A stretch of 64,000 nucleotides of DNA, from positions 77,316,574 through 77,380,573 of the forward strand of contig CM055899.1 of the NCBI GenBank assembly GCA_029582155.1, written 5' to 3'. Below are positions 12,624 through 56,900 of this stretch, piece after piece. The position numbers and the translations under genes were made by a program. Position 1 is the stretch's first letter; each line of letters starts with the position of its first letter. Source of the stretch: Panopea generosa. Taxonomy: Eukaryota > Mollusca > Bivalvia > Adapedonta > Hiatellidae. The notes below the pieces were generated by a model. The model was not told where the DNA came from and did not search any database. It saw only the letters and a list, made by a program, of their open reading frames with translations.

Positions 12624-12918
12624 TTGATTGATTGATTAATTGATTGAATATTTACCATCATTTTTATGCCATCAACGGCTAACAGACGATCAGTTAACCT
12701 AACCACTGTTTCCTGGGATTAACCAGTACTCGAGCACACCCCGTCTCCGCAAGTAACTGATAACTTTCCCACTTGTATCAGTGTTGAGAGACGAATGATA
12801 ATGAGACACAATGTCGTATATCAATCATCACGGAGACTGTTGCCGGGCGGGGGATTCGAACTCACGACCCCTGGATTGATAGTCAGACGCGTAACCGACT
12901 GAGCTAATCCGGCCCGGC
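12624..12918 (-). mobile_element. tRNA-derived SINE, full length with target duplication
   Basis: Read on the minus strand, it starts with a tRNA-like head: GATTAGCTCAGTCGGTTACG (A box), then GGGGTCGTGAGTTCGAATCC (B box). A body of about 220 bp follows and ends in TCAATCAATCAAT. The flanks CCAAGAGTGAAG (12611-12622) and CCAAGAGTGAAG (12919-12930) are an exact target-site duplication, so the insertion is fairly young. At least eight relatives lie in the window. Confidence 0.93.
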
Positions 12919-14535: not shown

Positions 14536-14970
14536 TACAGCAAGCAGTTTGTATAACCATCCAAGTTTTACTGACACACAGTCATAGTGAGAGTTGTAGT
14601 TGCTGCATGGTGTGTTTAGCATTGCTTTCAACGATATTTCAGTCATATCAGGGCAATGTCTACTTGATACAGTATTCTGAGAACTGCCATACTGAAGTGT
14701 CATGTCACAGACACATGGTATGGTACCTCATCCAGTCACATTATACTGACAACGGGTTGACCAGGCCTAGAACAATCCTTTTAATGCTGAGCACCAAGCA
14801 AGGAAGGTTCTAGTACCATTTTTTTCAAGTCTTTGGTGTGACCGGACAAGAGATTCGGTCCATGACCTTCTTTATGAGAGGCCAATGCTCTACCAATAGA
14901 CCATCACTGCAGTTCATAATGGGAGTTAGTCATATGATAATCAATGAACATTAATTGTACTGCTCTACAA

Positions 14971-15266
14971 TTGATTGACTGATTGAATATACAGCATAAT
15001 TTTTATGCCATCGAGGGTTAACATACGATCATTTAGTCTAACCATTGTTTCCTAGGATCCTTGAAGGTTAACCAGTATTCGAGCTCACCCCATCTCCACA
15101 AGTAACTGATAATTTTCCTACTTAAATCAGCCGGGGAGCAATAAATGATAATGAGATGCAATGTTGTTTATCAACCCCCAAGGAGATTGTGGCCACACAG
15201 GGATTTAAACTTATGTCCCCTGGATTGATAGTCAGATGCGCTAACGACTGAGCTAATCAGACCCGG
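14971..15266 (-). mobile_element. tRNA-derived SINE
   Basis: This is the same family as 12624-12918. The tail ATTGATTGACTGATTG is at the left and the tRNA head (GCGCTAACGACTGAGCTAAT on the plus strand) is at the right. The flanks ACTGCTCTACAA and ACTGCTATATAA look like a diverged target duplication, which makes it an older copy. Confidence 0.88.
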
Positions 15267-27700: not shown

Positions 27701-30700
27701 TGATAAAGCCAAATAAACAAACTGATCATGCTGGGAATGATGATGATTATAATGAATGATCTACACAGCAGTTGATATAATCTTCCCAAGAGATTCAAAT
27801 CAAGCACTGCTGGATATTTATGTCTTGTAACACTTTTATTCAGTAAAAAAAAAAAAACTAATATCCTTTGTATGACAGTTTACATCTGATAGTATTATTG
27901 CCATAGATGTACCAAAAAAACTCCTCGACACCTAATCTCTGCTTTAAAGAATAATATCAGATTTCTCCAAATTTTAAAATAAGCTAAAAACAATTTTCCA
28001 AATATATCATGCTTATATATACTAACTGACTCCAAATTGCCAAATGGATATCTATTTAAATATGCCAAAATAATATACTGACAGATTTCCTAACTTGGGC
28101 TATGCACCTAAGTAAGACTTAAATAGATTTCCTAACTTGGGCTAAGCACCTAGGTTAGACTAAAACAGATTTCCTCACGTGGGCTATACACCTAGGTTAG
28201 ACTAAAATATATTTCCCGCTTAAAATTACAACATTATTGTGACACATGATTTTTTTTCAATTTGATCCATTATATAGGATTACACATAGTAAAATTGTTT
28301 TATCTTAGAAAGAGTCCTTATGACAATGTAAAGGCCATCAAGCAGTATTTAAGTGCCGTCTGATTTTAGAAAATGGGGATTTCCTTTCAAGTTTACCACT
28401 CCAATTCAAATGTCAAGTTTGTGCCATTTTTTGATGGATATGACATACATGTAACCATTTGGATTTTATTCATGGATGATAATGTGATTTTTTTTATCCA
28501 TTTTAAAAATAATACTAATTTTTAAAACATTTAAAGCGTTTTTCCCCAGATATGCACCCTTTAATTTGAGGCACTGAAATCCTTAATATTCACAATCATG
28601 TATAAAACTTTACCTCTTTCATAGGAGACTTGCTTCGCCTGCTTCGTGCTGATGATGTACCATTTACCTCTGTCTTCTGTGGCGGTGCCCTGGACGACCG
28701 ACCTCTTCTAGGCGTCGCTTCCTCGGAGTCCGACTCTGTGGACTCTGGTTTTGACGACTTGTTTCCCCGCGTTTTCTTTACAGGCGTTTCTTCTTCTGAC
28801 TCCTCTTCTTCATCCTGCGATGAAGCTGTGGGTGCCCTGCGCTTTCCTGATAATTTATTATTTTCTGCTGCCTTGGACTGAAAGTAGATGATAAACTCAT
28901 TAATAACACTAATAACACAATAATAGTTGGGAAATAATCTACAGTAATAAATGTCTGGCAACTGTTTCATGATTTTATATAAGCAACCAACATGTTTTCA
29001 ATATTTCATTCATAATAATAATTTAGCTCAATGTTGATGCTTTCATGAATGCTTCCTGGGTAGAACAAGGGACTGGTTTCACGAATCATCCAAATCTGAA
29101 AATATCTTCTCTTCAAAAATCTCAATTTATCTAAATGAAAATTTTGAACTCACAACTGTCATGTTAAATGACCACACAAGTTTAAACTTAGAGCAAGTTT
29201 TAATACATTGGTAAGGGATAACATGCAAAATTATCTACATAAATTAATGACTGATAGATTGAATATTTAGCGTCATTTTATGACATATTAAGATATGAAT
29301 TTTTGTGATAGTAAGATGGACTTGTTCAGTTGTTGTCTATAGTTTGTGGTGCAATAGTGTAATGGATACAGAATTGACATCTCGCGCCAGATGTCACCAA
29401 TGTTCAATCAAACTTTGGACTGATTGCCTTCCAAAAACAATTATTAGTTCTACTTCCAGGATTTTACAAAAGCTTTCTAAAAGTAAAATATATATTAAAA
29501 ATATTTGTTTCTAATTACCGATGTTATATATAATCTTTATTTCCTCCATATATGAAGAGATAATACATACATGTATTACAGAAACATGATAAATGGGAAT
29601 TATTTGAAAAGATTTATAAATACATGTAGTTACAATTTCAATACTGTCTAACAATCAATATTTACATTTCAACATGTAGATTTCACATATATATAAATAG
29701 TTAAGAACCATATGAAAAATGAAGCAGGTAATTATGGTTGTAAGATAGCTATTTACATTAATGACAACAACAACAACAACATATATGATAATAGTCATAC
29801 ATGTAGTTATATATTGTTAGAAATAAATAATGTCATTTTGTTTATTAAAATTCACATTGATAATACATACTAAGCACTCATATTAAGACAGCCTTAATCG
29901 AAACATTAAGACAACTAAGACGAGCTCACATGTTTTTTTGTTGTTAAAAATAAAGTGCTTTAAATGAGATTTTTTTACACACAAACACAGCAATCACCCA
30001 CAAACATTCAAGCATTCAAACACACACACACACGCACGCATTTGCTCGTTCGCACGCATACAAGAAGGCACGGCACACAGACAGACAGAAACACACACAT
30101 ATATATACAAACATCTATGCAATTATTATATAGATATATATCAAATAATGATTATGTTAATTACATTATCAGCGCGCTTGCAACAGTTTATGTTTACAGG
30201 ATTTCATGTTAACATTTGTCCGCTCTTCATGACTAGTGAACATTTGGTCAGGACAAGTAAGATTTAAGAAAATGACCTCAATATTTCTTTGATTTTAAGC
30301 ATTCAATTTAAAATATTGGAAAGGGAGGACGATTAGCTTTTTTATCAGAAATTTCAAGCCCTGCAGGTTCTTTCAAGAACTAATTAATATTCAACATGAA
30401 ATGATTTTTAAATAATGAACACTCTAGACCAGAGTAAGTCAGATGTCATAAAGCTGACCTCCATAAATATAAACAGACTAGCATAAAAAAAAGCCTCTCA
30501 TAGACAGCTTAGTACTGGATCTTGCTGAGAAACATAATATAGGCTTGAGCTTACATTGTAATCAAGGTTAAATAAAGTTATTATAAAAGATTAATTGAAT
30601 ACTGATTGATTGAATATTAAGCATTACTTTAATGCCATCTAGGGCTAACAGACAATGAGTTAACCTAACAACTCTTTCCTGGGATCCTGGAAGGTTAACC

Positions 30701-31109
30701 AGTACTGGAGCACACCCATCTTCGCAAGTAACTGATAACTTTCCCACTTGAATCAATGCTGTATATCAACCATCACAGAAACTGTTTTAAAACTTTTAAA
30801 TTTTAAACTCATTTGAAATTTAATACTTTATTCCGAAATTTACAGTGCTTTAATATGTGCAGCACAGAGTGGGTACAGTACTTAACGTTAAAATCTTCAA
30901 AATTCAAATTTCATCTTGAATATTAATTTTTTTTTTATTTTTTTATTCAGTTTGATGCGACTGGGATTTCTGTGCTGATTATGTTTTATGATCTTACCTT
31001 TTAAGCCGAGTCTTTAAATTGTTATGCAATACTATGTAAGCAAATTTTACTGTATGTACAGCACTTTTGAACGTATTTCTGATATGGTAAGAGTGCTATA
31101 TAAGTGTGG

Positions 31110-31165
<56 letters not shown>

Positions 31166-34100
31166 AATTACTAAAATCTTTTACAAGAAATATATTCATT
31201 TTTATGACAGCATAATTATGATTGATTCAACTTAGAAACAATGTCTAGAAAACAGTTCACCTTCTTTGCCGCCTCTGCTGCTTTTTTCTTTGCCTTCTCT
31301 TCCTGATCTTTTTTTCTTTGTTTCTCTTCCTGTTCTTTTTTCTTTGCTTTTTCCTTTTCTTCCTGTTCTTTCCTTCGCTGTCTTTCTTTTTCTTCTGCTT
31401 CTTTTCTTTTTCGCCTTTCCTCTGCATCTTTTTCTCGCTGTTTCCGCCTTGCTTCTTCCTCCTTCTTTCTTCTCTTTTCATCCATCTCTTTCTGCTTTTG
31501 TTTCTGTTTTTGTTCCTGTTCTCTTCGTTTTTTCCGCTCCTCTATTTCCTCTTTCCTTCTTCTTTCCTCTTCCTCTTCTTCTTCTTCCTCAATTCTTTTC
31601 CTTTCTTCTGCTTCTTTCTTTCTATCCATTTCTTGTAATTCCCTTGATGAAGTCACAACCCTGTTTTTCTGTATGAAACACAAATCAATACTATATCAAT
31701 AAAATTTTGATGTCTCAAATATATATATATATTTCGTCCTATTAGTGCAAAAATGTGTCAAATGTCTTATTATTTTACCTACATTTAGCACCTTTTTGCC
31801 CTAAAGGAAGGATTCGTTCTTTTAAAAGAGTATTGATGTGATAATGGAACAAGAGATGATAATTAATTTATTTTACTAAAGACATACCCAACATTGGTAA
31901 CATTGTTTTAGGTTTAATTCCACATTACAGTTTAAATGTGGCATCCAGTTTTATGAGATAGAGCTGAAATGAATACGTCAGACTCAGTAGAACTGCCATC
32001 CTCACGCAAGTAACTGGCAAATGTTCTCAAATAAAGTGGCTGGACCAAGAGCTTAGATGAGAGAGGTTAAGTATCCTGAGACACAATCACGAACAACCAC
32101 AAATAATAAACAAGACGCTGCAAGTGGGTGCACATGCTGGTCTTTTAAGTAGGTAAAGGTCAGCAATCTTGGTGATCAGTTTAAAAAATCAATACTATTA
32201 CTGGAAAACAAAATATATATAAAATAAAACAAATTCAAACCAAAACTAAACAAAGACCTTTAGCCTAAGGTTTTTGAGCCCAAAGTATTGAAACATAAGT
32301 CACTTAGCTACATACATTGTTTGTATAACATGATATAAATGTACCGTATTTATAAAGTTTAGTCATAAAAGTATTTTATTGAGAAATAGACGAGAAGCTG
32401 AGTCCAACATAACACTTTAACAGAACCATCCCTACATCAGAGTCAAGACAATAGCTCCATTAAATAGGTGAAGGTCAGTGATGTAAACATTTAACATGAA
32501 GATGAATAGTTTACAGAACCAAGACCTAGTGCTGAAAAAGTTTACAGAACCAAGACCTAGTGAAAAAGTTTACAGAACCAAGACTAGTGCTGAAATAGTT
32601 TACAGAACCAAGACCTAGTGCTGAAATAGTTTACAGAACCAAGACCTAGTGCTGAAATAGTTTACAGAACCAAGACCTAGTGCTGAAATAGTTTACAGAA
32701 CCAAGACCTAGTGCTGAAATAGTTTACAGAACCAAGATTGCTGAAAAACAAAATAGATTTTAAAAAAATTAATACTGAGCTAAACAAAAAACTTTAACTA
32801 AGGTTTTGGAGCCTATAATATGCGAACTTGGTTAATTAACTTTATAAATTGTTTGCATAACATGATATGAAGTGTAGTTACAATAAAATAAGCAGTTTGT
32901 TCTAAAACAGAGAAAAGGCTGAGCTAAACATATATCTTTAATTGGACACGGCTGACGTCAGCTCTTGACAATAGCTCTTCGCTTTCTCTCAAAAAGATGA
33001 GATTAAAAAATAAAGAAATGAGGCAACATACATGCATTTTTTCCAACATTTCTAACTTCTTCTTAATGTCTGCTTCAAGGTCTTTCTCCTTGTCTTCGTG
33101 TGATTTTGATTCTTTTTTGAGAACACCCTCTGGAAAATTCATTTTTTGCTCCGCAGCAGTACATCTGTAAATGTATTAATTCTGAACCTGAACCATATGT
33201 ATCAATGCTGCATGGTCTACATAAATATCTGAACCTGAACCATATGTATCAATGCTGCATGGTCTACATAAATATCTGAACCTGAACCATATGTATCAAT
33301 GCTGCATGGTCTACATAAATATCTGAACCTGAACCATATGTATCAATGCTGCATGATCTACATAAATATCTGAACCTGAACCATATGTATTAATGCTGCA
33401 TGGTCTACATAAATATCTGAACCTGAACCATATGTATCAATGCTGCATGATCTACATAAATATCTGAACCTGAACCATATGTATCAATGCTGCATGGTCT
33501 ACATAAATATCTGAACCTGAACCATATGTATCAAAGCTGCATGGTCTACATAAATATCTGAACCTGAACCTGAACCTTATGTATCAATGCTGCATGGTCT
33601 ACATAAATATCTAAACCTGAACCATATGTATCAATGCTGCATGGTCTACATAAATATCTGAACCTGAACCATATGTATCAATGCTGCATGATCTACATAA
33701 ATATCTGAACCTGAACCATATGTATCAATGCTGCATGGTCTACACAAATATCTGAATCTGAACCTTATGTATCAATGCTGCATGGTCTACATACATGTAA
33801 ATATCTGAACCTGAACCTTATGTATCAATTCTGCATGGTCTACATAAACATCTGAACCTGAACCATATGTATCAATGCTGCATGGTCTACACAAATATCT
33901 GAACCTGAACCATATGTATCAATGATGCATGGTCTACATAAATATCTGAACCTGAACCATATGTATCAATGCTGCATGATCTACATAAATATCTGAACCT
34001 GAACCATATGTATCAATGCTGCATGATCTACATAAATATCTGAACCTGAACCTTATGTATCAATGCTGCATGGTCTACATAAATATCTGAACCTGAACCA

Positions 34101-37100
34101 TATGTATCAAAGCTGCATGGTCTACATAAATATCTGAACCTGAACCATATGTATCAATGCTGCATGGTCTACATAAATATCTGAACCTGAACCATATGTA
34201 TCAATGCTGCATGGTCTACATAAATATCTGAACCTGAACCATATGTATCAAAGCTGCATGGTCTACATAAATATCTGAACCTGAACCATATGTATCAATG
34301 CTGCATGGTCTACATAAATATCTGAACCTGAACCACATGTATCAATGCTGCATGGTCTACATAAATATCTGAACCTGAACCATATGTATCAATGCTGCAT
34401 GATCTACATAAATATCTGAACCTGAACCATATGTATCAATGCTACATGGTCTAGTTTGGCAATTTCAATTTGACATGTATGTATGTATATATGCTTCTGT
34501 ATGCGTTTGATGTTTAATGTTTTGCATGCACCTGTATGATAAGTTTGTTTCTAGTTTATTCATATTTCTGAAAATAAAATATTGGTAAACACAAGACATC
34601 CATCACTTACATGTATTTAATACACATATTACTATATATAGTAACAAAAAAGGGCATGTTTTAAGCCGGTTATTGCCTTCACGCGCTGATTATCACTTAT
34701 CGGCCTGGGCCGAAAACTCATAATCATAATCGGCCCGGTGAATGCGGGGGCGTGAAACCAATGACCACGATAAACATCATCATTGTCTGTTTATTTTCAA
34801 TATGTCAGTATATTCTTTCACAGATAAAAAGTAAGTGTCTTCTTTAAAGAAAATCGCGAGTGTTTGTGTACATTATTTTATTATTTCCATTCTGTTTCTA
34901 ACGTAAACAAATCAAGAGAAGCAACTGCATAGCGACCTACATTTGAAACTGAAAAGTAAATAAAAATCTTAAAATACGACGTCAACGTCATAATGGCACA
35001 ATAGCTCAGTTGGTTAACTTGCACGTCATATTACATTTTATCAATCTGAACGTCGTGTGTTCAAGACGCTTCAATGACGGTTTCTTTTTGTTTTAAAATA
35101 AAATTGTTTATATATTTTTTTTTTCTTTCATTTTATACATGGTTAAAATATAAATAAAGTATGTGTACACATAATTTAGAAGCATGTGTAATAAAGAGTT
35201 TGATTAATGGACATCATGAGCATTGCCTTGTAGTGGTAAGTGAAAACGTAATTACTCCCTTTGAGTGTCGCAACAAAAGACTTTAATACACGACAGAGCC
35301 AGGCCGGGAGGTGATAATCGGCCCGAACTCATAATGGCCTTCGGGTTATTTTCCGGGCCGATTATCACCTCCCAGCCCGGCTCTGTCCTGTATTAACCTC
35401 TAAATCCTGGTTGAGGACAGCGATTATAATTGTCCAGTTTTATACCATATCCATCATTTGGAATAATAAAGCAAAACAAACACTTTTTTTTTTTAAAGAT
35501 ATTCATTCAACAAAGGCATTAATAAAATGCAAGAAATTAGTTGCCACTTTAAGTGCCACTGCAGAAATAAACATTGCAGAAATAAAACTCTCTGATTTTG
35601 AGGTAAAAATGCAGAAATTTATGGTCGCAGAAAAACAACCTTTCTACGGGAACAGATTTGGTTGTTACCATATATTTAGGTTTATAAGGTTTGACACAAA
35701 AATGCAACAGAAGCTCTGCAGAGTTTCACCATGTCCTATTTTCTCACCTTATAAAATGTCCTAGGGAAAGGATTTATTCTCTTTATCAAATGATGGGGTC
35801 AAACCTACTTACTTGCTGTGTTGTGTATCAGGGTTATTGTTACATATCCAGTCATCACTGAATTCCTTCCCAACATTCCCTGATGAAAACGGCAGTGATC
35901 GCCACTTAAGACAGGCATCTGGAATAACAATAACATTTACAAGAAAAAATTAACATCTATCTTAAAATATCATTAGGTGTTTAATGGAAACATGTCAAAT
36001 GTCTTCATAAGAATGAATTGGAGTTTCATGGGATACTTAACACATAAAAGGTTTTATAAAGATAACAGGAAGGAGTCCTGGCTTAAAGGTAGTACATCAG
36101 GAAAAATCACGTTACATTATGAATATCTTAAAAAAAATGAAATTATATTTTTATTGAATACAAAGGATCTTCTTATCATTAATAAATAAAATCCAAATGG
36201 TTTGGTATATAGAAACCACAAAAACATGCAACAAAAACAATAATTTAATCAGATTGGTTAAACGTGAAAAAAAGATCTCCATTCAAGAAACCATCTAAAG
36301 ACACATCAATGTCAGGACAACCAATCATAAACCATCTAAATATACATCAATGTCCAAACAACCAATCATAAACCATCTACAGATACATCAATGTCAAAAC
36401 AACCAATAAGATGCATCAATGTCAGAACAACCAATAAGATACATCAATGTCAGAACAACCAATCATAAACCATCTAAAGATACATCAATGTCAAAACAAC
36501 CAATCATAAACCATCTAAAGATACATCAATGTCAAAACAACCAATAAGATACATAACAGAAAAACCAACCATAAACCACCTACAGATACATCAATGTCAG
36601 AACAACCAACCATGAACCATTTAAAGATACATCAATGTCAGAATAACCAATCATAAACCATCTAAAGATACAACAATGTCAGAACGACCAATCATACACC
36701 ATCTAAAGATAATTCAATGTCAGAACGACCAATCATAAATCATCTTATGTTACATTAATGTCAGAACGACCAACCATAAACCATCTAAAGATACAACAAT
36801 GTCAGAACAACCAATCATACACCATCTAAAGATAATTCAATGTCAGAATGACCAATCATAAACCATCTAAAGATACATAAATGTCAGAACAACCAACCAT
36901 AAACCATCTTAAGATACATCAATGTCAGAACAACCAATCATAAACCATCTAAAGATACATCAATGTCAGAACAACCAACCATAAACCATCTAAAGATACA
37001 TCTATGTCAGAACGACCAACCATAAACCATCTAAAGATACACCAATGTCAGAACGACCAACCATAAACCATCTAAAGGTACATCAGTGTCAGAACCACCA

Positions 37101-38876
37101 ACCATAAACCATCTAAAGATACAACAATGTCAGAGGATACACCAATGTCAGAACAACAAATCATAAACCATCTTAAGATACAACAATGTCAGAATGACCA
37201 ATCATAAACCATCTAAATATACATCAATGTCAGAACAACCAATCATAAACCATCTTAAGATACATCAATGTCAGAATGACCAACCATAAACCATCTAAAG
37301 ATACATCAATGTCAGAACAACCAATAAGATGAATCAATGTCAGAACAACCAAAAAATACATCAATGTCAGAACAACCAATCATGAAACCATCTTAAAATA
37401 ATCACATCTACTTACCACACTGTAAAGTAACATTGATCTGCATGGCACGTTTCCTGATATATTTACTATCTTCAGAAGGGGCGTCTTTCCAACGCTGACT
37501 TATATAACCGAAATTCTCCCTTAAAACAAAATTCAACATTTTACACTTTATGAAATAACTTTTTTTATCTTCTATACATATAATTCATAACAGTAGTATG
37601 TTGATAGTAATTCATAAAGCAAGTGGGCGTTTTACCCTCACTATTCCAAATGTTAAAATGGCCACAAAATTCAAACCAGTAATGTAGGTAATATAACAAA
37701 TGGGCTCTCTGGACAGTCAGCCATGTTCCTTATCTGCAATTGTTTTATTTTTCTCTGACATACATATAGGATCCATTTTAGCCAAATGGTAGAAGTTGTC
37801 TTTTCAAGATCACTAATCCCTTACTGCCGAGGTCGTAGGTTCGAATCTAGCTAGGTCCAAAAACATCATGCGAGACATTTTGCCTTTTGCCAAATGAAAA
37901 TGGTTCTACTAAAAATTCATGTATATAGATTTGAGGTGGTCCTCCGTCAACAAGAGGGCCATGGGCTTTAAAGGTCACTTGATTATCCTTGATGACATAA
38001 AACTATTTTGAATCTACAACCCACCCTAAGACATTATATTAACCGTCATATCAGCAACAATAAATCACACCAAAAAACATTCACATAAGTCTATTCAGTC
38101 ATAAGAAATAACATTTTTTGTCATTTTCTCTTATATAGATTTAGTAAAGTAGGCCCCACCCTAAGGGCCATACTGTGAGACCCAGGAACATGCAGTTCAC
38201 AATTTTAATAAAAAACCCATATGCGTCCATATTCATGGTCACCGTTGTTTCCCAGTGCTTCCAAAAGTAAGAAGAAGATTTTCAAAGTTTACCTTGAATT
38301 TGACTATTTTGCCTCCCTCCCCCTCCCCCCCCCGCCCCCAAGGCCCCAGGGAGGGGGGGACCATGCAATTCACAATTTTGATTCACTCTAAAGCTGCATA
38401 CAACATTTAATTACAATTGAGCTTACGCTATTTGAGAAGAAGATGAAAATGTCAATTGTTTACTTGCGCACGACGGACGAAAGACAAAAGATGATCGCAA
38501 AAGTTCCCTTGAGACAAAGTCTCAGGTGACCTAATAAAAACTGGATGCCATAGATATAGATTATATCCTGCACTGAAAAAAGCAGTAAACCCAATTCAAT
38601 TACTAATTCATGTCTCGTGTTATCTTCAGCAGGAATATGATTAAAATTTTGACAAACCCTAGTTATCTGTAATGAATCTATGAAATAAGTAAGCACTTAC
38701 CAGAATTTTAAAACACCCTGTTGTGCTGAAATGAAAATACATGTAGATATAAAAGTGTTTATTAATTATTATTTTAGCAGATCATCATGTCCAATTAAGT
38801 AATATAATATATATTTTTTATAATTCATTTAAATATTATATATAAGGGGAGTTATTGCATGGTGTTTTTTTCAATT

Positions 38877-38910
<34 letters not shown>

Positions 38911-41900
38911 TTTAGCAAATTTTTATGCCATCGAGGGCTAAAAGACGATCAGTTAACCTAACCACTGTTTCCTGGGATTAACCAGTACTCGAGCACACCC
39001 CATATCCGCAAGTAACTGATAACTTTCCCACTTGAATTAGCGGTGGGAGACGAATGATAATGATACACAATGTCCTATATCAATCATCACGAAAACTGTT
39101 GCCGAGCGGCGATTCGAACTTAAGACCCCTGGATTGATAGTCAGACTTTTTAATTTGAAGAAAAAGCAATCATTTACACAATTATTTGAATTGTTTACAA
39201 ATATCTAAACTTTTTAAATCCATTAGAAATGACTATCTGTGTTTATCTTTATTAAAATTCTTTCAATACTTGGCAACTTTATTCCCATGTGATTTACCTA
39301 TATCTAAATCCTTTCAATAATGAACCATATATTCACACACTGACTTAACTTTACCAATATTAAAAAATATCACTTTTACATCCCTCCAATAAAGGCCAAG
39401 AAATTACTTACCTATATTTAAATCCTTCCAATATTGGACCATATGTTCCCACAAGACTAAGTCCATCCTTAAAAAAAAAATGTTTGCTGTGCTCCGACCC
39501 AGTATTTTCCATGTTGGTGGGTAGGTAGCTAATTTTTTTAATGCAAATTTTGATTTTGCAGTCATTTTAAAGAAAAATGTACAGAAATTATGAAAAAAAA
39601 TCAAATGCTTAGAAAGTCAATAAAAATGTTTGTGTAGCTGCAATTTTGAGTGAGTAGGTAGGCGCACGGTAAACAATATATTTTTTAAGGATGTTTTATA
39701 AGGATGGCCTTACCTATATTTAAATCCTTCCAATATTGGACCATGTGTTCCCCCATAGCTTTCATGAGATGCCTGTATTCTTTGGCATCAGCAAAATCTT
39801 GCTTATTATGGGTTGGTTCTAATACATAGTAGGGTACATTGACTATCCCCACCACACCGCTGCAGAAACTGAAAGTAAAAATGAAAAAAATATATATTTA
39901 TATATCAACATTCAAATTTTGGTACCAGTTGGCAAGTATATGTAGGCAGTATTTTAAGCCGAAATTAAGATAAAATGTTGGTGCTTCATCTGGAAAAATA
40001 GGCGGGCGGTACATCATAGAATCTGGGTTTTGTAATATACAAGTAATTTAGCAATACTCCCTGATACCAATCATGCACCAAAAAACAAAGAATATGAAGA
40101 CATAAACTAATTTCATAAATACAAATATAAAATACAACAAAATCATATATTTAAGAGAAAACAAAACAGAAAATAGAAAAACTGTATAAAATAGTTTATA
40201 ATATATGTTTTAAAGAAGAGGTCCAAGATGGACGTTTGTGCACTTTGCAAAGGAACACACATATATATTGGCAGAATCCTAGGTGTACTGCAGTCATAAG
40301 GACACAGGGTGACAACACGTATTGATGCATTCACTACAAGGTATGTCCCAAAAGTAATACGACGCATTTAGAAATATGCCTTTCAGTGTTGTTTCAATCC
40401 AAACAAAACTTGGCATGAATACTTTTCAATATTTAAACTATAAGCATGCAAAATTTCAATATCGTACACTACCATTTAACATTAATTTTGACAAGTCAAA
40501 ATGTATATGTAACAAAGTATGGGGGAGTTTGACGTTATTTGTGCGATGTCAAGTTGACATTCATATGAAAGTCATTCTTTTTTCGAACTATGAACCGCTG
40601 TGCAAAACACAATTTTTGTGTTACTGCACCCACTACAGGTACATGTTACGATACTATGATAACTCATAGATCCTAACCACAGAATGTACACTCAGGTACA
40701 TGGCCCGGAGGTATTGAAAGCACTTTTCACCAAGATCTGACTTGAATCCCAGAAAAGACACACAAGATTTCGGTCGACCAGATCACTGATGGTCAGTTAC
40801 TTTTTACTCATCATTGGAAACCCATTTGTACCACCAATAGATAAGACTCCAGGATATGCTTTTTGTTAAAGACTCCAATTATTTTACTATTCAAATTCAC
40901 ACTTCTTCTTTTGAAAATGCGCAAAATATTAAAATGTTTATTGACAACGTCGAATTTTTAAACAACATTAATTTTGCACATGATCTGAAACTATGTCCAC
41001 TGTTATTTCATAACATTTGGCAAGATATTGAGGAAGTTGTTTGCTTTCCAAGGAAATGTTGTTTTTTAAATGGCGTCTTATTTCAAAGTCCCCCGTATTT
41101 CTAAACTCGCGTTACTATGGTGACTTTTGATGATGACTGAAAGTTGATTTGATGTTTTATGACAATAGAAGATGTGTCAATCTATCTATTGATACCATTG
41201 GTTTACATGTGACGCCCTAAATACAAAAATGAAGGGTCATCCTATTACTTTTGGGACATACCTTGTATGTCACTTTTGATTTTAGGGTCACTTTATTATA
41301 ACTGTTATTGTTCAATGACATTTCGTCTCGATGTAATCGTCATTTTATTTTATTTAAATAAAATTATTATTTAACACTGTGTCCAATTTTCAGTGAAATG
41401 TGTCACTATTTGACAGAGGTATCAACAAAAAGTCAAGTAAGGGGTTATATATTAGAAAAGTTGTATAATATTGGTTTTAAATAATGCCACTGAAATTGTA
41501 TTTATCAATGCCAACAGTTTAAAACCTTTGCCTGAAACATGCCCAATTCCCTTAAAACAGTACTATGGCTAGGAGGCCATACACAGCTGCACAAGTCACA
41601 AACAGTACTATGGCTAGGAGGCCAAACACAGCTGCACAAGTCACAAACAGTACTATGGCCAAGAGGCCATTCACAGCTGCACAAGTAACAAACAGTACTA
41701 TGGCCAGGAGGCCATACACAGCTGCACAAGTAACAAACAGTACTATGGCCAGGAGGCCATAAACAGCTGCACTAGTACCAAACAGTATTATGGCCAAGAG
41801 GTCATACACAGCTGCAAAAGTAACAAACAGTACTATGGCCAGGAGGCCATACAAAGCTGCACAAATAACAAACAGTACTATGGCTAGGAGGCCATACAAA

Positions 41901-44900
41901 GCTGCACAAGTTACAAACAGAACTATGGCCAGGAGGCCATAAACAGCTGCACAAGTAACAAACAGTACTATGGCCAGGAGGCCATAAACAGCTGCACAAA
42001 ATACAAACAGTACTATGGCCAGGAGGCCATAAACAGCTGCACAAGTCACAAACAGTACTATGGCCACGAGGCCATAAACAGCTGCACAAATCACAAACAG
42101 TACTATGGCCAGGAGGCCATACACAGCTGCACAAGTCTCACACAGTACTATGGCCAGAAGGCCATACACAGCTGCACAAGTAACAAACAGTACTATGGCC
42201 AAGAGGCCATAAACAGCTGCACAAGTAACAAACAGTACTATGGCCAGAAGGCCATAAACAGCTGCACAAGTCACAAACAGTATCTTGGCCAGGAGGTCAT
42301 ATACAGCTGCACAAGTTACAAACAGTACTATAGCCAGGAGGCCATAAACATATGTACAAGTCAAAAACAGTACTATGGCCAGGAGGCCATAAACAGCTAT
42401 ACAAGTCACAAACAGTACTATGACAAAGAAGCCATAAACAGCTGCATAACTCACAAACAGAACTAATGCCAAGAGGCCATAAACAGCTGTACAAGTCACA
42501 AACAGTACTATGGCCAAGAGGCCATAAACAGTTGTACAAGTCACAAACAGAACTATGGCCAGGAGGCCATAAACAGCTGTACAAGTCACAAACAGTACTA
42601 TGGTCAGGAGGCCATAAACAGCTGTAAAAGTCATAAACAGAACTATGGCCAGGAGGCCATAAACAGCTGTACAAGTCACAAACAGTACTATGGCCAGAAG
42701 GCGAAAACAGCTGTTCAAGTCACAGACAGTACTATGGCCAGGAGGCCATAAACAGCTGTACAAGTCACAAACAGAACTAATGCCAGGAGGCCATTAACAG
42801 CTGCACAAGTCACAAACAGTACTATGGCCAGGAGGCCAAAAACAGCTGTACAAGTCACAAACAGTACTATGGCCAGGAGGTCATAAACAGCTGTACAAGT
42901 AATAAACAGTACTATGACCAGGAGGCCATTAACAGCTGTACAAGTCACAAACAGTACTATGGCCAGGAGGCCATAAACAGCTGCACAAGTCACAAACTGA
43001 ACTATGGCCAGGAGGCAATAAACAGCTGCGAAAGTCACAAACAGTACTATGGCCAGGAAGCCATAAACAGCTGCAAAGGTCACAAACAGTACTATGGCCA
43101 GGAGGCAATAAACAGCTGCACAAGTCACAAACAGAACTATGACCAGGAGGCCATAAACAGCTGTACAAGTCACAAACAGTACTATGGCAAGGAGGCCAAA
43201 AACAGCTGCACAAGTCACAAACAGTACTATAGCCAGGAGGCCATAAACAGCTGCACAAGTCACAAACAGAACTACATGTATGTCCAGGAGGCTATAAACA
43301 GCTGCACAAGTCCCAAACAGAACTATGGCCAGGAGGCCATTCACAGCCTGCAAGTCACAAACAGAATTATGGCCAGGAGGCCATAAACAGCTGCAAAAGT
43401 CACAAATTGTACTATGGCCCTATGGCCACGAGGTCATAATTAGCTGTACAAGTCACAAACAGAACAAATACCAGGAGGCCATTTACTGCTGTTAAAGTCA
43501 CAAACAGAAATATGGCCAGGAGGTTATTCACAGCAGTACAAGTCACAAACAGAACTATGGCCAGGAGGCCATAAACAGCTGTACAAGTCACAAACAGAAC
43601 TATGGCCAGGAGGCCATTCACAGCAGTACAAGTCACAAACAGAACTATGGCCAAGACGCCAAAACAGCTGCAAAAGTCACAAACTGTACTATGGCCAGGA
43701 GGCCATAAACAGCTGTACCAGTCACAAACAGAACTATGGCCAGGAGGCCATAAACAGCTGTACAAGTCACTAACAGTACTATGGCCAGGAGGCCATAAAC
43801 AGCTGTATAAGTCACAGACAGTACTATGGCCAGGAGACCATAAACAGCTGTACAAGTCCCAAACAGAACTAATGCCAGGACGCCATTAACAGCTGCATAA
43901 TTCACAAACAGTACTATGGCCAGGAGGCCATAAACAGCTGCACAAGTCACAAACAGAACTATGGCCAGGCCATACACAGCTGCACAAGTCACAAGCAGAA
44001 CTATGGCCAGGATGCCATTTACAGCTGTACAAGTCACAAACAGAACTATGGCCAGGAGGCCATATACTGCTGCAAAAGTCACAAACTGTACTATGGCCAG
44101 CAGGGCCATGAACAGCTGTACAAGTGACAAACAGAACTATGGCCAGGAGGCCATAAACAGCTGTACAAGTAACAAACAATACTATGGCCAGGAGGCCATA
44201 AACAGCTGTACAAGTCACAAACAGAACTATGGACAGGAGGCCATAAACAGCTGCACAAGTCACAAACTGTACTATGGCCAGGAGGCCATAAACATCTGTA
44301 CAAGTCACAAACAGTACTATGGCCAGGAGGCCATAAACAGCTCTACAAGTCACAAACAGTACTATGGCCAGGAGGCCATATACAGCTGCAAAAGTCACAA
44401 ACTGTACTATGGCCAGCAGGGCCATGAACAGCTGTACAAGTCACAAACAGGACTATGGCCAGGAGGCCATAAACAGCTGTACAAGTCACAAACAGAACTA
44501 TGGCCAGGAGGCCATAAACAGCTGTACAAGTCACAAACAGAACTATGGCCAGGAGGCCATAAACAGCTGTACAAGTCACAAACAGAACTATGGCCAGGAG
44601 GCCATAAACAGCTGTACAAGTAACAAACATTACTATGGCCATGAGGCCATAAACAGCTGCACAAGTCACAAACAGTACTATGGCCAGAAGGCCATAAACA
44701 ATTGTACCAGTCACAAACAGTACTATGGTCAGGAGGCCATTAACAGCTGCAAAAGCCACAAAAAAGGAAAATGGTGAGGAGGCCATAAACAGCTGCATAA
44801 AACACAAACAGAACTATGGCCAGGATGCCATAAACAGCTGTACAAGTCACAAACAGAACTATGGCCAGGAGGCCAAAAATAGCTGTACAAGTCACAGCAA

Positions 44901-47900
44901 AACTATGGCCAGGAGGCCATAAACAGCTGTACAAGTCACAAACAGTACTATGGCCAGAAGGCCATAAACAACTGTACAAGTCACAAATAGTACTATGATC
45001 AGGAGGCCATTAACAGCTGCAAAAGCCATAAAAAAGTACTATGGTGAGGAGGCCATAAACAGCTGCATAAGACACAAACAGAACTATGGCCAGGACACCA
45101 TAAACAGCTGTACAAGTCACAAACAGAACTATGGCCAGATGGCCATTAACAGCTGGATAAGTCACAAACAGTACTATGGCCAGGAGGCCATAAACAGCTG
45201 TACAAGTCACAAACAGAACTAATGCCAGGAGGCCATAAACAGCTGTACAAGTCGGAATACAGATCTATGGCCAGGAGGCAATAAACAGCTGTAAAATTCA
45301 CAAACAAAACTAATGCCAGGAGGCCATAAACAGCTGTACAAGTCACAAACAGATATATGGCCAGGAGGCCATAAACAGCTGTACAAGTCACAAACAGAAC
45401 TATGACCAGGAGGCCATAAACAGCTGCACAAGTCACAAACAGTACTATGGCCATGAGGCCATGAACAGCTGCACAAGTCACAGACAGTACTATGGCCAGG
45501 AGGCCATAAACAGCTGCACAAGTCACAGACAGTACTATGACCAGGAGGCCATAAACAGCTGTACAAGTCACAAACAGTACTATGGCCAGGAGGCCATAAA
45601 CAGCTTCAAAAGACACAAACAGAACTATGGCCAGGAGGCCATAAACAGGTATACAAGTCACAAACAGAATTATGGCCAGGAGGCCAAAAACAGCTGCACA
45701 AGTCACAAACAGTACTATGGCCAGGATTCCATAAACAGCTGCACAAGTTACAGACAGTACTATGGCCAGGAGGCAATAAACAGATGCACGAGTCACAGAC
45801 AGTACTATGGCCAGATGACCATAAACAGCTGTACCAGTCACAAACAGTACTATGGCCAGGAGGCCATAAACAGCTGTACAAGTCACAAACAGTACTATGG
45901 CCAGGAGGCCATAAACAGCTGCACAAGTCACAAACAGAACTATGGCCAGGAGGCCATATACAGCTGTACAAGTCACAAATTGTACTATGGCCAGGAGGCC
46001 ATAAACAGCTGCACTAATCGCAAACTATGGCCACAAACAGAACTATGGCCAGGAGGCCATAAACAGCTGCACAAGTCACAAACAGAACTATGGCCAAGAG
46101 GCCATAAACTGCTACACTAATCACAAACAGAACTATGGCCACAAACAGAACTATAGCCAGGAGGCCATAAACAGCTGTACAAGTCACAAACAGAACTATA
46201 GCCAGGAGGCCATAAACAGCTGCACAAGTCACAAACAGTACTATGGCCAGGAGGCCATAAACAGCTGCACAAGTCACAGACAGTACTATGGCCAGGAGGC
46301 CATAAACAGCTGCACAAGTCACAGAGAGTACTATGGCCAGGAGACCATAAACAGCTGTACAAGTCACAAACAGTACTATGACCAGGAGGCCATAAACAGC
46401 TGTACAAGTCACAAACAGTACTATGGCCAGGAGGCCATAAACAGCTACACAAGTCACAAACAGAACTATGGTCAGGAGGCAATAAACAGCTGCACAAGTC
46501 ACAAACAGTACTATGGCCAGGAGGCCATAAACAGCTGCACAGGTCACAAACAGTACTATGGCTAGGAGGCCATAAACAGCTGCACAAGTCACAAACAGTA
46601 CTATGGCCAGGAGGCCATAAACAGCTGCACAAGTCACAAACAGTACTATAGCCAGGAGGCCATAAACAGCTGCACAAGTCACAAACAGAACTATGGGAAG
46701 GAGGCCATAAACAGCTGTACAAGTTACAAACAGTACTATGGCCAGGAGACCATAAACAGCTGCATAAGCCACAAACAGAACTATGGCCAGGAGGCCATAA
46801 ACAGCTGTACAAGTCACAAACAGAACTATGGCCAGGAGGCCATAAACAGCTGCATAAATCACAATCAGAACTATGGCATAAAAAGAACTATGGCCAGGAG
46901 ACCATAAACAGCTGTACAAGTCACAAACAGAACTATGGCCAGGAGGCTATAAACAGCTGCACTTATCACAAACAGAACTATGGCCACAAAAAGAACTATG
47001 GCCAGGAGGCCATAAACAGCTGTACAAGTCACAAATAGAAACTCAAGCTCATTACGTATATTAACAGAGCGATGGACATTATCATATTCCATAAAGATGA
47101 TTTTTTTTTTAAATATCTGTACATGTATATTACATACAACGGGCCATTCTGGATTATGATAAAAGTTGAAAGGCATAATATCAGAGCTCTAGACCTTTTT
47201 TAAAAAATACTTTTCAATGTAAATTACGATGTGTAAAAATGCTTCATAGGTAGAACCAGTACTGAGATTTGTTTTTTGAGAGGTATCGTGTTGAGCTGAA
47301 GATTGAACTTGCCACCTCTGGTGTGTGCTTCCGACAATCTATCCGCTTCCAAATTCCCTCCCGCCCCACCCTCCTGGAAACTCTTTGAAAAAACAAGGTC
47401 TAGCATAAAGCAGAAAATAACAAAACAGAATGCACCAATATCTGTTAAAATAAATTAACTTCAAATGTTTTGAAATGTTTCAAGTTTCAGTATGTAACCT
47501 TTCTTACCTTTCATCTTCTGCTTGTCTATAGAAATTCAAAGTAAGAATTGTTTGTGTATTGTATATGTAGTGTTGCTTTCAATCAACTTGTAATCACACC
47601 ATGATCACGTTTACTACAGACAGTGCATAGGCTTAATTAACAACAAAAACTACATTAGGGTCTGGGTTCTGCCTTCCACTGCATGGGTTGAGGGTGTACA
47701 TGACACTCCCTTTTCTTTAGCAACAAAAAATGTTTCATTTAAATTCCATTTGTAATAAGTCAGCATTTAGGCAATCTTGTTTTCCAAACAATTATGGTGA
47801 AATTGATTATCAGAACAATTTTAGGTAGACCATATTGTCATAACATGTTGAGAAGACATGTTGTAGAATTTTAGGTAGACAATATTGTCAGAACACTGTT

Positions 47901-50900
47901 GAGTAGACATGTTGTAAAATTTTAGGAAGACCATATTGTCAGAATGTTTTAAGATTAACCAAATTGTCAGAACAATTTTAATCTAACCATGTTATCAGAA
48001 CAATGTAAGCTACACTGTGCTGTCAGAACAATGTAAGCTACACTGTGCTGTCAGAACAATGTACATGTAAGCTACACTGTGCTGTCAGAACAATGTAAGC
48101 TACACTGTGCTGTCAGAACAATGTAAGCTACACTGTGCTGTCAGAACAATGTAAGCTACACTGTGCTGTCAGAAATTTTTAGATAGTTATGAGAACAACG
48201 TTCAGTCTTAAATAAATCTGTGACTTACACTCCACCATCAACCTGAGGTCCGACCTTCTCGTACATCTTGATGAGATGACTGCAACTGTAATTAAATCTG
48301 TGACTTACACTCCACCACCAACCTGAGGTCCGACCTTTTGGTACATCTTGATGAGACGACTACAATTGTAAATAAATCTGTGACTTACACTTCACCATCA
48401 ACCTGAGGTCCGACCTTTTGGTACATCTTGATAAGATGACTACAATTGTAAATAAATCTGTGACTTACAGTCCACCATCGACCTGAGGTCCGACCTTTTG
48501 GTACATCTTGATGAGACGACTACAACTGTAATTAAATCTGTGACTTACACTCCACCATCAACCTGAGGTCCGACCTTTTGGTACATCTTGATGAGACGAC
48601 TACAATTGTAAATAAATCTGTGACTTACACTCCACCATCGACCTGAGGTCCGACCTTTTGGTACATCTTGATGAGACGACTACAATTGTAAATAAATCTG
48701 TGACTTACACTCCACCATTGACCTGAGGTCCGACCTTTTGGTACATCTTGATGAGACAACTACAATTGTAAATAAATCTGTGACTTACACTCCACCATCG
48801 ACCTAAGATCCAACCTTCTCGTACATCTTGATGAAACGACTACAATTGTAAATAAATCTGTGACTTAACACTCCACCATCGACCTGAGGTCCGACCTTCT
48901 CGTACATCTTGATGAAACTACAATTGTAAATAAATCTGTGACTTACACTCCACCATCGACCTGAGGACGACCTTCTCGTACATCTTGATGAAACAACTAC
49001 AATTGTAAATAAGTGTATGACTTACACTCCACCATCGACCTGAGGTCTGACCCTTCTCGTACATCTTGATTGAAATGACTACAATTGTAAATAAATCTGT
49101 GACTTACAGTCCACCATCGACCTGAGGTCCGACCTTTTCGTACATCTTGACTGAAATGACTACAATTGTAAATAAATCTGTGACTTACACTCCACCATCA
49201 ACCTGAGGTCCGACCTTCTCGTACATCTTGATGAGATGACTACAATTGTAAATAAATCTGTGACTTACACTCCACCATCGACCTGAGGTCCGACCCTTCT
49301 CGTACATCTTGATTGAAATGACTACAATTGTAAATAAATCTGTGACTTACACTCCACCATCGACCTGAGGTCCGAACTTTTCGTACATCTTGACTGAAAT
49401 GACTACAATTGTAAATAAATCTGTGACTTACACTCCACCATCGACCTGAGGTCTGACCTTCTCGTACATCTTGATTAGACAACTACAATCGTAAATAAAT
49501 CTGTGACTTACACTCCACCATCGACCTGAGGTCCGACCTTCTCGTACATCTTTATTAGACGACTACAATTGTAAACAAACACGCCATCGTGGGAGCGCTG
49601 GTCTATGTTGATACCAAATATAAGGTTTAACGTCTTTGGGTCCTTTAAAGCTCTGTGAGAGAATGGATGAATTCAACTATAAAATACCAGATTATGTTGT
49701 ATAAAGAAAGCTGAATAATATAGATGATTAGAATAATCATTGAATTACATGTACATGATATCATATATTTATTGATTTCCCAAACTAGTCCTATGAAAAA
49801 AATCAAAGTCTCATTAGAGGGTCCCAAAGGGTTCAAGCCCCTCTATCTGAACACACTTGAAATCCCTGCTCATAGGTATCATTTATACAAAAAACTGTAG
49901 GAACAAATATGGCTTGAAGTTCTTGAGAAAATGATTTTAAATTTCCATATATGTAAACTGATAAATCCCTGGTGTGGAGCCAGTTTGACTCTAGGGTAAT
50001 AGCTTGAAAACACCTGAGAGGGATATCGTTAGGTACATGCAAAATATCAAAGCTCCATCCTATCAGTTTTGGAGACGATTTTTTAAATTTAAAAAAAGCA
50101 AAAATAAACTGATAACGTCTGTGGCGGGGTCAAATTTGATCCCAGGACCATGATTTGTCAAACTTGATCCCAGGACCACAATTTGTCTGTGGCGGGGTCA
50201 AATTTGATCCCAGGACCATGATTTGTCAAACTTGATCCCAGGACCATGATTTGCCAAACTTGATCCCAGGACCATGATTTGAACAAACTTGAGAGAGTTA
50301 AACATAAGAATGCTTCACACCAAAATATCTGCCAAGCACTGGTTTTATTTAAAAGTCATTAGAAGCAAAAGTAAACGACAGAAAATAAACAAAACAGATG
50401 AAGAACAGATGGAGACCATGCAAGAGAGTCGACAAACAGAAATATGCAGGATGACACAAATGCCCCAACTCTGCATGTGGCTGCATATTTAGCAAAGCCA
50501 TTTAACTAAGGCCATTTTTAAACAAATATTTGTGTGCTTTAAATCAACAGTTACCATCACATATAATTACACTTGGGTCCTGTTATACTGCGGTCCGATA
50601 TAACGCGAAACTCATTATAACGTGGTTTTTCTTTGACTCCCAAATTTAAAATTGATATTTTCCAACCTGATTCCTCAAAAACTTGTGGTATAATAATTGT
50701 TTAATTGACAGAAAATCTCAACTAAAGCACTAAGTGTTTGCAAGCTCGTTACGTTTTTCCAAACTATGACCATGTATTTGTGCATCAGTTACACCTTCAT
50801 AATTCAGACTGAAATGATAACAAGTTCTTATTGTTATAAACAACATCACTTTTAATTGATTTATGCCAACAAACAATGGTCTGTCATATTCATCATAAAT

Positions 50901-53900: not shown

Positions 53901-56900
53901 CAAAGAGAAATTATTTTATTGAATAGAAACTCAAACAAATACCTGGTTTCCTTTTTTATAAATAAGCAATTTACATTGAAAAACTATCAGGATATGAAAC
54001 TCAAAATATTGAGCAGACGCCATTTTTTCCATCTGTTTTTAGCAACAGTGACTCACCCATCATCTGAATCAAAGTCAGATTCTGGATTATTCAGCATGAT
54101 GTCGAGCGGGTTTGACAAAACATCCAATTCTGGATCTCCATTATCCAGTAGCTTCATATTGTACACTATCACCAGGGTCCCAGAATCTCCCTCAATACGA
54201 TCAAATTGTGCGAAGAAGTCCTCATCCGTCTTGAATGGAGAGTGTCGCAATATTACATCCATCTCCAGGGCATACTGTAGGAATATACAATATATAAAGT
54301 CAAACAGATTGCTTTTCTCTCAATGTAATATAGTATCAAGTTAATGTCCTGTCATAAAATTATCCTCTTAATGCTGTCCGAGCATTTAGCAGGGAAGCTA
54401 CAAATCTTTTTAAAGAAATAGATATGACACTGCACAATATTTAATCTGCAATCTTTTTCATGCAAAGCAGGTGCTCAACCAGTAGACCAGGAGTTCCATA
54501 ATGTGTATTTCTTTAAGATAATACTGTGAGCTAAATATTTGTTATTCAAAACAAAACAGCAAGCAATACAAATTATGCATCTTTACTTTATGTGTATCAT
54601 TTCACTTAATGTCAACAGTAAAGACATATATTTCTTATCAACTTTTTCAAAAAAATTCATTCCAACGTAATTAATATGAAAGATATCAAGCATACCCAGT
54701 TTGTTCCAATTCATTTCTGTTAAATTGTGTTGCAGGTTCTCATACTCTTCTTAAAATTTATTGTGGGTGACAGAACGGCTACCTGAGTCATTAACACATC
54801 TGGCTGCCTGCCAATCCAGGGAACGTGAAATAAAACCATGTCCGGCCACAGTCTCTTTGTTTATTTGAATATTTAGTGTCATTTCATGCATTTGAGTGCA
54901 AACAGACAATCATTTAACCTAACCACTATTTCCTGGGATCGTGGAAGGTCACACTCATCTCCACAAGTAATTAATAACTTTCCCACTTGACTCAGAAGTC
55001 GCAGACACATAACAATGAGACGCAATCTCACTTGTCAATCATCATTAAAACTGTGACCTGGTGGGGATTTGATCTCACAAACCCTGGATTTATAGTCAGA
55101 CACCCTACAGACTGAGCCAACCAGGCCGGCCCAAAGACTCTCAATGTTTGCCCATGAGCTTTCTTCTACTCCAGGAATTCTCACCTCTGGATGTGATGTG
55201 GGGAAACAGGCATTGGTATGCAGAGGTAAAGTGTGTCTAGTTATGGTTAACAGATCCCAAGAACAATTAGGTGAGCTGGTCGCTGTTATAAACTGAAACA
55301 CTGTTTAAAGAAGGCACATAAACCCATACGAGCATATCATCCTATAAGTAAGGACAGAATTAAATGTCTTATTTTTTCCTTCTTAAAAATAGCACTACCC
55401 AAAACATTTTATTGCTCTTTTCCATAAATTTCTATTATATTTTTGTTTTAGAATTTCACTTTGTTTCGGAAAATAAAAATGTACCTACATCTGAAATCCT
55501 TGCCCAGTAAATTGTAAAAATGGACAATAATATATGTTTTGACTTTTGGCCTGAAGCCAGTTTTTATTGGCAGTTATCTTACCTTTTCCTGTCCATGGTC
55601 GCTGTCATCCAGCGGCGTTTGCGTGCCAGCCTTGAACGCCGGCAAAGGCACTATCACCTGCAATACAGACAATAATTGATAGGAGTCATAGTTACTTATT
55701 AACACTCCTAATATAGTAAACTCAATCTTTTCTTTAATAAAATTAAAATGCACTGCATCAGACAATTTATTGTTGAGTTGAGACCCTTGTGGTCATATTT
55801 ACCTTTTTTCATAGTAGAATTAGAATATGTCCTTTATGTACTTTTCTCCCAGCAAGTATATATATTTTCTTCTACTAAAATTGTACTGCAATTTTTTCTG
55901 ACAGTTAACTGTTCTTTATTTTTATTATAAATTGGGTAAGAATATCACTCAGAATGCAAATATTTCAGATTGTGATGAAAATGTAAATGACCATAAACCC
56001 AATCCATTCCACTAGAACAGTGAAAATATATACTGTGAAATCATTAATTTTTGTTGGGTACTATTTTCCGTGGATTTTCGTGGGGAGCCAAGACAACGAA
56101 ATCAAATACCCACGAACTTAGTTTACTCTATGTAATGCTGTCAACATATAAATTACCTCTGTTTTCATATGCCTACGCGCATCACATTGTGGTAAATAAT
56201 CCATCCATTTTTTATATATTTTATTTTGTCATATTGCATCAATATTTACACTGATAATTTTGTAAACAGTTTAAGAAGTTTTTAATACTCATATCATCTT
56301 TAGTACTATGTTCATCCACTCATAGATGTGTGTTTGTAGCGAGATGTGTTTACCCTGCTGCATGTGTATTTCAATCAAATGCCAGAGGTGCTAAAAATAG
56401 ACCGTCACCTTGGAGCTAAATGCTATTGAGTTGAAACATTTTGAAACAATCTGACGTATAGACCTACAGTAAACTTTGTAAAAAAAAAGTGTAAAACATT
56501 GTAAAGGGATAGTGTTTTTATTTTATTCTATTGTTTCTCTTTATGATCAAATATGGTGATAAATTTTTAATGAATAAAACAAAGACGTAGCACATTGATT
56601 GACTTTTTATTATCACAGTCAAGTGATGTGGCACATACTATTGTTTTTGACAGCAGGCCTGCCTTCTGAAACCTTTTCTGGATTAGATCTCGTACTTCTC
56701 CTTTCTTCTCCTCTTGTTTGCATAACAATTATTTCAAAATCAATTGTATATTAGGGTACTAATTGGCATACATCAACTCTTTTTGGCACAGCGGGATGCA
56801 ATAACACGGAACGGTGTTTTACAGAAGAGGTTAATAACTGGAACACACTATGCGATGTCAAAAGTGTAAACTTATTTTATCTTTAATTTTTTTGTAAATT

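What the first reader, a model, noticed from the sequence alone, without database searches (positions are those of the whole stretch)
48208..49652. MORC2 exon tail plus 5' splice site amplified into about 17 in-frame, exon-like 80-bp units
Seen directly: after exon i the intron repeats the last 51 coding nt, the donor GTAAGTCAC and a 29-nt spacer ending TTGTAG, about 16 more times. Each 51-nt block lacks stops, is a multiple of three and is bounded by AG and GT in the right phase. A 17-residue module ([16 protein letters not shown]) could in principle be added in any number. A single 29-nt spacer is too short for a normal intron, but skipping whole units gives 109 nt or more. If a downstream donor is used without removing the spacers, translation stops at once (GTG TAA). 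The array is therefore either a cryptic generator of repeat-number protein variants, a row of competing donors that lowers output, or neutral satellite growth from an exon. I know of no described example in MORC2.
Basis: partly seen in the sequence, partly recalled or inferred. Interest (0 to 1): 0.85.

Follow-up and report, generated by a model that had tools for sequence, protein, structure and literature searches.

The report
Exon-edge minisatellite ("mirage") in MORC2
The end of one MORC2 exon, together with its splice signal, has been copied 16 more times into the following intron of an animal gene; it looks like a neutral, still-changing minisatellite of a rarely described kind known from amphioxus, not a generator of protein repeats.

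Summary
On the minus strand, 17 units of 78-82 bp (48213-49575) repeat the end of a MORC2 exon, its donor GTAAGT and a little intron. Three details of the finding are wrong. The exonic share is 64 nt, not 51; part of the "spacer ending TTGTAG" is coding sequence. Only 10 of 16 extra blocks are open and in frame (5 frameshifted, 1 with a stop). Substitutions look neutral (7 synonymous, 11 non-synonymous; P=0.22). Splicing from the first donor (49511) to the next exon (39869) gives the same MORC2 length as in human at this junction; any later donor meets an immediate stop.

A second MORC2 copy, probably the other haplotype, also has 17 units, differently arranged inside. An independent array of the same kind (97 bp, 9 units) sits at the donor of an SNF2-family exon on another chromosome; there the block is 64 nt in all 9 units, never a multiple of three.

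This matches the "mirages" of amphioxus: minisatellites spanning exon-intron boundaries that reportedly do not disturb splicing. Best reading: a neutral mirage in a genome crowded with minisatellites. No RNA data were available, so splicing is inferred.

The parts
49512..49652 (-). MORC2 exon i (141 nt), true copy; its last 64 nt are in unit 1 of the array
   Evidence: phmmer to human MORC2 residues 358-404, E 2.6e-19; identical in the second copy
48213..49575 (-). 17 tandem units of 78-82 bp: 64 nt exon end + 16 nt intron start in unit 1
   Evidence: TRF 48209-49579 period 80
49506..49511 (-). authentic donor GTAAGT, predicted to be the one used
   Evidence: joins exon 39869 in frame with no change of length against human MORC2
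49508..49510 (-). TAA stop read at once if any later donor is used; 77 nt or more upstream of any such junction
48223..49431 (-). 16 extra donors, first bases at 49431, 49350, 49268, 49188, 49107, 49025, 48946, 48869 (GTTAAG), 48788, 48708, 48628, 48548, 48468, 48388, 48308, 48228
49572..49579 (-). TTTGTTTA in the exon, one member of the short imperfect repeat that bounds the founding 80 bp
48209..48216 (-). TTTATTTA at the intron end of the array, the other member of that short repeat
39715..39869 (-). MORC2 exon j, the next exon, acceptor TTTTTACTTTCAG
39407..39450 (-). copy of the last ~38 nt of exon j plus gtaag, a second, degenerate exon-edge duplication
   Evidence: 97.7% over 44 nt, E 1.6e-17
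39294..39328 (-). second, more diverged copy of the same exon j edge
   Evidence: 88.6% over 35 nt, E 5.5e-5

Best explanation
It is a minisatellite that grew from the 3' edge of a MORC2 exon, the structure called a 'mirage' in amphioxus. Step 1 (inferred from the ends): a slip or unequal exchange between TTTGTTTA in the exon and TTTATTTA 80 bp downstream in the intron doubled an 80-bp piece holding 64 nt of exon and the donor. Step 2 (shown): there are now 17 units that have drifted and been reshuffled in blocks, differently in the two copies of the gene. [quoted passage not shown] Step 4 (inferred from the reading frame): use of a later donor yields an mRNA with an immediate stop that would be destroyed, so the array is tolerated as nearly neutral.
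For: Canonical splicing 49512 to 39869 gives GGV-FCSGVV against human GGMACGGVV, no length change (human sequence recalled). The true exon is identical in both gene copies while array units vary; 12 exon pieces compared differ at 4 of 1499 sites, all synonymous. Broken extra blocks: 6 of 16 in the window array, 2 of 16 in the other. Distinct substitutions in 26 in-frame units of both arrays: 7 synonymous, 11 non-synonymous, 28% synonymous expected, P=0.22. The 51-nt block is not more conserved than the 29-nt spacer. Turnover: units 7-10 of the second array are identical to units 12-15. An independent array of the same kind at an SNF2 exon, 97 bp, 9 units. Arrays of 150 bp or more cover 31% of the window and 23.7 of 59.5 kb in six further C6 samples. 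PMC9225289 (abstract, sections 6 and 7): near-equal donors with long flanking introns favour the upstream one. PMC3902484 and PMC3087553 (passages): mirages reportedly do not disturb splicing.
Against: No RNA was examined, so use of donor 49511 is unproven. The upstream preference in PMC9225289 is a bias (60% over all near-equal events), taken from human data, and does not rule out sizeable use of later donors. The donor hexamer is intact in 31 of 32 extra units over both arrays, which could mean selection on donors; about 2 distinct changes were expected there, so the excess is weak (my arithmetic). The TTGTAG site has 9 of 17 pyrimidines, within the 8-15 of eight MORC2 acceptors, so occasional cassette use is not excluded. 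In the second array 14 of 16 blocks are open and in frame.
Confidence: 0.83

Rival explanations
1. A row of competing donors acts as a splicing brake: the more units, the more pre-mRNA is spliced at later donors, hits the GTG TAA stop and is destroyed, lowering MORC2.
For: 16 extra donors, 15 of 16 intact; every later donor gives a stop 77 nt or more before the junction, a geometry that would trigger decay. The published preference for the upstream of two near-equal donors is only 60% over all events (PMC9225289 section 6).
Against: Long flanking introns favour the upstream donor (PMC9225289 section 6) and shorter exons are preferred (section 7); amphioxus mirages reportedly give normal mRNA (PMC3902484 passage). 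No RNA structure stands out over exon i and two units (z +1.18). Nothing shows that unit number is kept by selection.
Confidence: 0.1
2. A reservoir of 51-nt cassette exons that adds 17-residue modules to MORC2 in variable number.
For: 10 of 16 blocks in the window and 14 of 16 in the second copy are open and in frame; acceptor-like TTGTAG with 9 of 17 pyrimidines; skipping one unit gives a 109-nt intron.
Against: 6 of 16 window blocks broken; no purifying signal; a 29-nt spacer is too short for an intron (general knowledge); insertion would fall inside the region between the exons matching the Morc6_S5 domain; the SNF2 array's block is 64 nt in 9 of 9 units and cannot keep frame, so 51 being a multiple of three looks like chance.
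Confidence: 0.04
3. An assembly artefact: collapsed or expanded repeat.
For: The assembly has a 500-N gap nearby (C6:77507720-77508219) and near-identical blocks about 0.72 Mb apart.
Against: Two separately placed copies both have 17 diverged units, with shared order at the exon end and private block duplications inside.
Confidence: 0.03

Closest known systems
Mirages of amphioxus: Adh3, globins BflGb6 and BflGb9, troponin C, PGBD5 (PMC3087553 and PMC3902484 read as passages; Canestro et al. 2002 seen only as a reference, not held)
Intron gain by tandem genomic duplication (Rogers 1989 as cited in PMC3087553; potato RdRp case PMC4974935, seen in a search listing only)
   Same: Tandem copying of an exon piece that carries splice signals.
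   Different: No new intron: the old intron only gained sequence, and the protein length at the junction is unchanged.
Internal tandem repeats at exon-intron boundaries in human segmental duplications (PMC2812944, passages)
   Same: Minisatellite expansion at exon-intron boundaries, variable between near-identical gene copies.
   Different: There the repeats can form novel introns or be kept within exons; here they lie downstream of the true donor and no transcript evidence exists.
Minisatellite birth from unique sequence between short direct repeats (Haber and Louis 1998, recalled, nothing seen)
   Same: Founding 80 bp bounded by TTTGTTTA / TTTATTTA.
   Different: Here the unique sequence happened to include an exon end.

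Membership tests
Mirage (exon-intron boundary minisatellite) | Tandem unit spans an exon-intron boundary and carries the splice signal | tested here: met
   64 nt exon + GTAAGT + 10 nt intron in unit 1; donor kept in 15 of 16 extra units
Mirage (exon-intron boundary minisatellite) | Authentic boundary intact at one end, extra copies inside the intron | tested here: met
   unit 1 is the true exon end; 16 copies follow
Mirage (exon-intron boundary minisatellite) | Concerted evolution within the cluster | tested here: met
   units 7-10 identical to 12-15 in the second array
Mirage (exon-intron boundary minisatellite) | Length instability between haplotypes or cells | tested here: inconclusive
   two gene copies, both 17 units but with different internal order; whether they are haplotypes is inferred
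Mirage (exon-intron boundary minisatellite) | Regular splicing of the mRNA | not testable with these tools
   no RNA data
Intron gain by tandem genomic duplication | A new intron splits formerly continuous coding sequence | tested here: not met
   exon i to j junction gives human-like MORC2 length
Coding VNTR adding protein modules | Units keep frame and lack stops | tested here: not met
   10 of 16 open and in frame in window array, 14 of 16 in the second
MORC2 gene | Protein similarity over collinear exons | tested here: met
   exon i E 2.6e-19 and exon h E 2.7e-28 to human MORC2 structures; twelve matches in collinear order, two of them weak on their own, E 0.27 and 1.4

The most novel reading that the evidence does not exclude
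Exon-edge minisatellites are a recurrent product of this minisatellite-rich genome, and a row of 17 near-equal donors works as a natural splicing dial: individuals with more units spill more MORC2 transcript into premature-stop isoforms, so unit number tunes the level of a chromatin silencer.
Probability: 0.07. Interest if true: 0.72.

Novelty: new member of a known kind. Interest (0 to 1): 0.36.

Why it matters
Under the name "mirage", my searches turned up such arrays only in amphioxus (listings, with two papers read as passages). Two independent ones here, in MORC2 and in an SNF2-family gene, suggest that a genome dense in minisatellites will make them, and that the feature is not special to amphioxus. 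The array is also a natural experiment on splice-site choice: 17 donors in a row, 16 of them with an intact hexamer, only the first of which gives a protein. Gene finders may be misled by such arrays.

Tried and rejected
Protein-module reading: rejected on frames, lack of a synonymous bias and the SNF2 comparison.

Selection for conserved donors: the hexamer is intact in 31 of 32 extra units, but too few changes were expected to judge.

Arrays cluster at exon edges: 3 of 9 arrays in the MORC2 region lie within 25 bp of an exon, but random placement gives this with P=0.15; not claimed.

RNA structure over exon i and two further units: no more stable than shuffles (z +1.18, 87 of 100 shuffles fold at least as well). 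tRNA and Rfam scans of the window: nothing. Pfam on exon i alone: nothing. Mitochondrial COX1, to help name the species: no match.

Another Morc6_S5 match cluster on C5 has a ~155-bp array upstream of an exon match, not followed up.

Survey for further mirages: the listed rows of seven family searches (594 matches reported, the last list cut short, and in most searches only part of the candidates scored) were read by eye for same-strand neighbours within about 300 bp on the same profile range. One exon-edge array (SNF2, C8) and two whole-exon triplications (tyrosine phosphatase, C3) turned up. One looser pair about 490 bp apart (SNF2, C8:6498951-6499852) was fetched and shows no repeat. Short copies are missed, so this is a lower bound.

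Full report
What is there. On the minus strand, twelve MORC2 exon matches run from 61653 down to 33166 in collinear order (human sequence recalled; two of the twelve are weak on their own, E 0.27 and 1.4; exons i and h confirmed against solved structures). Exon i is 49512-49652. Directly after its donor the intron repeats the last 64 nt of the exon, the donor and 10 further intron bases; with the true copy there are 17 units of 78-82 bp. The array ends at 48209 and the old intron goes on with AGACTG.

In the true exon the same bases are coding (Y-N-C-S), so unit 1 holds 64 exon nt and 16 intron nt, and TTGTAG is a leftover of coding sequence. Of 16 extra blocks in the window 10 are open and in frame, one of these shortened to 48 nt with a broken donor; 5 are frameshifted and 1 has a stop. 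In the second copy of the array 14 of 16 are open and in frame.

Origin. The founding 80 bp is bounded by TTTGTTTA in the exon (49572-49579) and TTTATTTA in the intron (48209-48216). This is the pattern expected if a slip between short repeats started the array (inference; the general model is recalled). The same gene has a second, degenerate case: the edge of exon j is copied at 39450-39407 and 39328-39294.

Second gene copy. The unit search scored matches at two places, the window and C6:78085214-78086556 (such searches give lower bounds). The second lies in a block collinear with the window region over the whole 110 kb fetched, with insertions and deletions; 22 of 36 aligned pieces are 94-99.5% identical, the other 14 (79-93%) largely fall in tandem arrays or dispersed repeats. 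Twelve exon pieces differ at 4 of 1499 sites, all synonymous. The two MORC2 arrays are 720 kb apart. A probe from 77.707 Mb has a near-identical twin at 76.993 Mb, 714 kb away; one from 78.304 Mb, itself a dispersed repeat, has no near-identical twin among the 44 matches listed; and a 500-N gap lies at 77.508 Mb, between the blocks. I infer two haplotypes placed side by side; a recent tandem duplication is the alternative. Both arrays have 17 units. Units 2 and 3 correspond best in order (distances 3 and 1; unit 6 of the window is as close to unit 3 of the other), the inner units are reshuffled, and units 7-10 of the second array equal units 12-15. So the array seems older than the split of the two copies and has kept turning over.

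Selection. Distinct substitutions in 26 in-frame units of both arrays, the two true exon units included: 7 synonymous, 11 non-synonymous, 28% synonymous expected, P=0.22. Variation is higher in the 51-nt block (about 7% of cells) than in the 13 exon columns before it (2.9%) and the 16 intron columns (1.0%); by columns the difference is not significant (P=0.19). A coding role would predict the opposite. The donor is intact in 31 of 32 extra units.

Splicing. Donor 49511 to the acceptor before 39869 gives MORC2 without any change of length at the junction. Any later donor reads GTG TAA, with the stop 77-1280 nt before the junction, so such products should be unstable. Exon i lies between introns of about 1.4 and 9.6 kb. 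In human data, near-equal donors are used upstream in 60% of events, long flanking introns favour the upstream one, and shorter exons are preferred (PMC9225289, abstract and sections 6 and 7). That is a bias, so some use of later donors would be no surprise. The TTGTAG site is not clearly worse in pyrimidines than eight MORC2 acceptors (9 of 17 against 8-15), so rare cassette use cannot be excluded.

An independent case. Among 57 SNF2 matches two neighbours share the same profile range. The DNA shows a 97-bp unit, 8 full copies and a partial one, at C8:20017723-20018569, spanning the end of the exon with GAILGDDMGLGKTVQ and the donor GTAAG. Its block between the acceptor-like TATAG and the donor is 64 nt in 9 of 9 units, not a multiple of three. 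That the MORC2 block is 51 nt is therefore best taken as chance. Reading on past the first donor soon meets a TAG in frame. Two tyrosine phosphatase loci on C3 show a different thing, a whole exon with both splice sites in about three tandem copies.

Base rate. Tandem arrays of 150 bp or more cover 31% of the window, and 23.7 of 59.5 kb in six other C6 samples, one of which has none. With so much array DNA some arrays will include an exon edge. Three of nine arrays in the MORC2 region lie within 25 bp of an exon; random placement gives this with P=0.15.

What is known. [quoted passage not shown] a later paper says Adh and TnC mirages do not generate aberrant mRNAs (PMC3902484, passage). Human genes in segmental duplications have variable repeats at exon-intron boundaries that can form new introns (PMC2812944, passages). 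The present array meets the structural features of a mirage. Searches for MORC2 with bivalve, and for tandem repeat with exon-intron boundaries, splice donor and bivalve, found no paper; the searches for mirages led only to amphioxus work among the papers I opened. The library holds only openly licensed papers.

Verdict. A real structure of a known but rarely reported kind, most likely neutral. Its value is as a further genome with mirages and as a natural test of splice-site choice.

Noticed in passing
C8:20017723-20018569 (L038): Independent exon-edge array, 97 bp x 9, at the donor of an SNF2-family exon; reading past the first donor soon meets a stop.
   Followed up: yes
L039 179-720 and L040 180-720 (C3): Whole-exon tandem triplication (197-199 bp units, 2.7-2.8 copies, splice sites included) in two tyrosine phosphatase loci; candidate alternative exons.
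   Followed up: partly
C6:76.99-78.14 Mb, 500-N run at C6:77507720-77508219: Near-identical sequence about 0.72 Mb apart with a scaffold gap between; probably a retained haplotype.
   Followed up: partly
36288-37404 and 33181-34453: Purely intronic minisatellites that begin 12 bp after a MORC2 exon and end 15 bp before another.
   Followed up: partly
12622-12888, 14970-15236, 26419-26685, 30589-30753, 38882-39146, 54857-55101: Six copies of a dispersed repeat of up to about 270 bp, seen in the comparison with the second block; could be a SINE-like element.
   Followed up: no
41555-47040: A 45-bp minisatellite of about 117 copies in the same intron, with higher G+C than its surroundings.
   Followed up: no
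L013 259-1223 (C5): Array of about 155-bp units upstream of an exon match of another Morc6_S5 gene.
   Followed up: no
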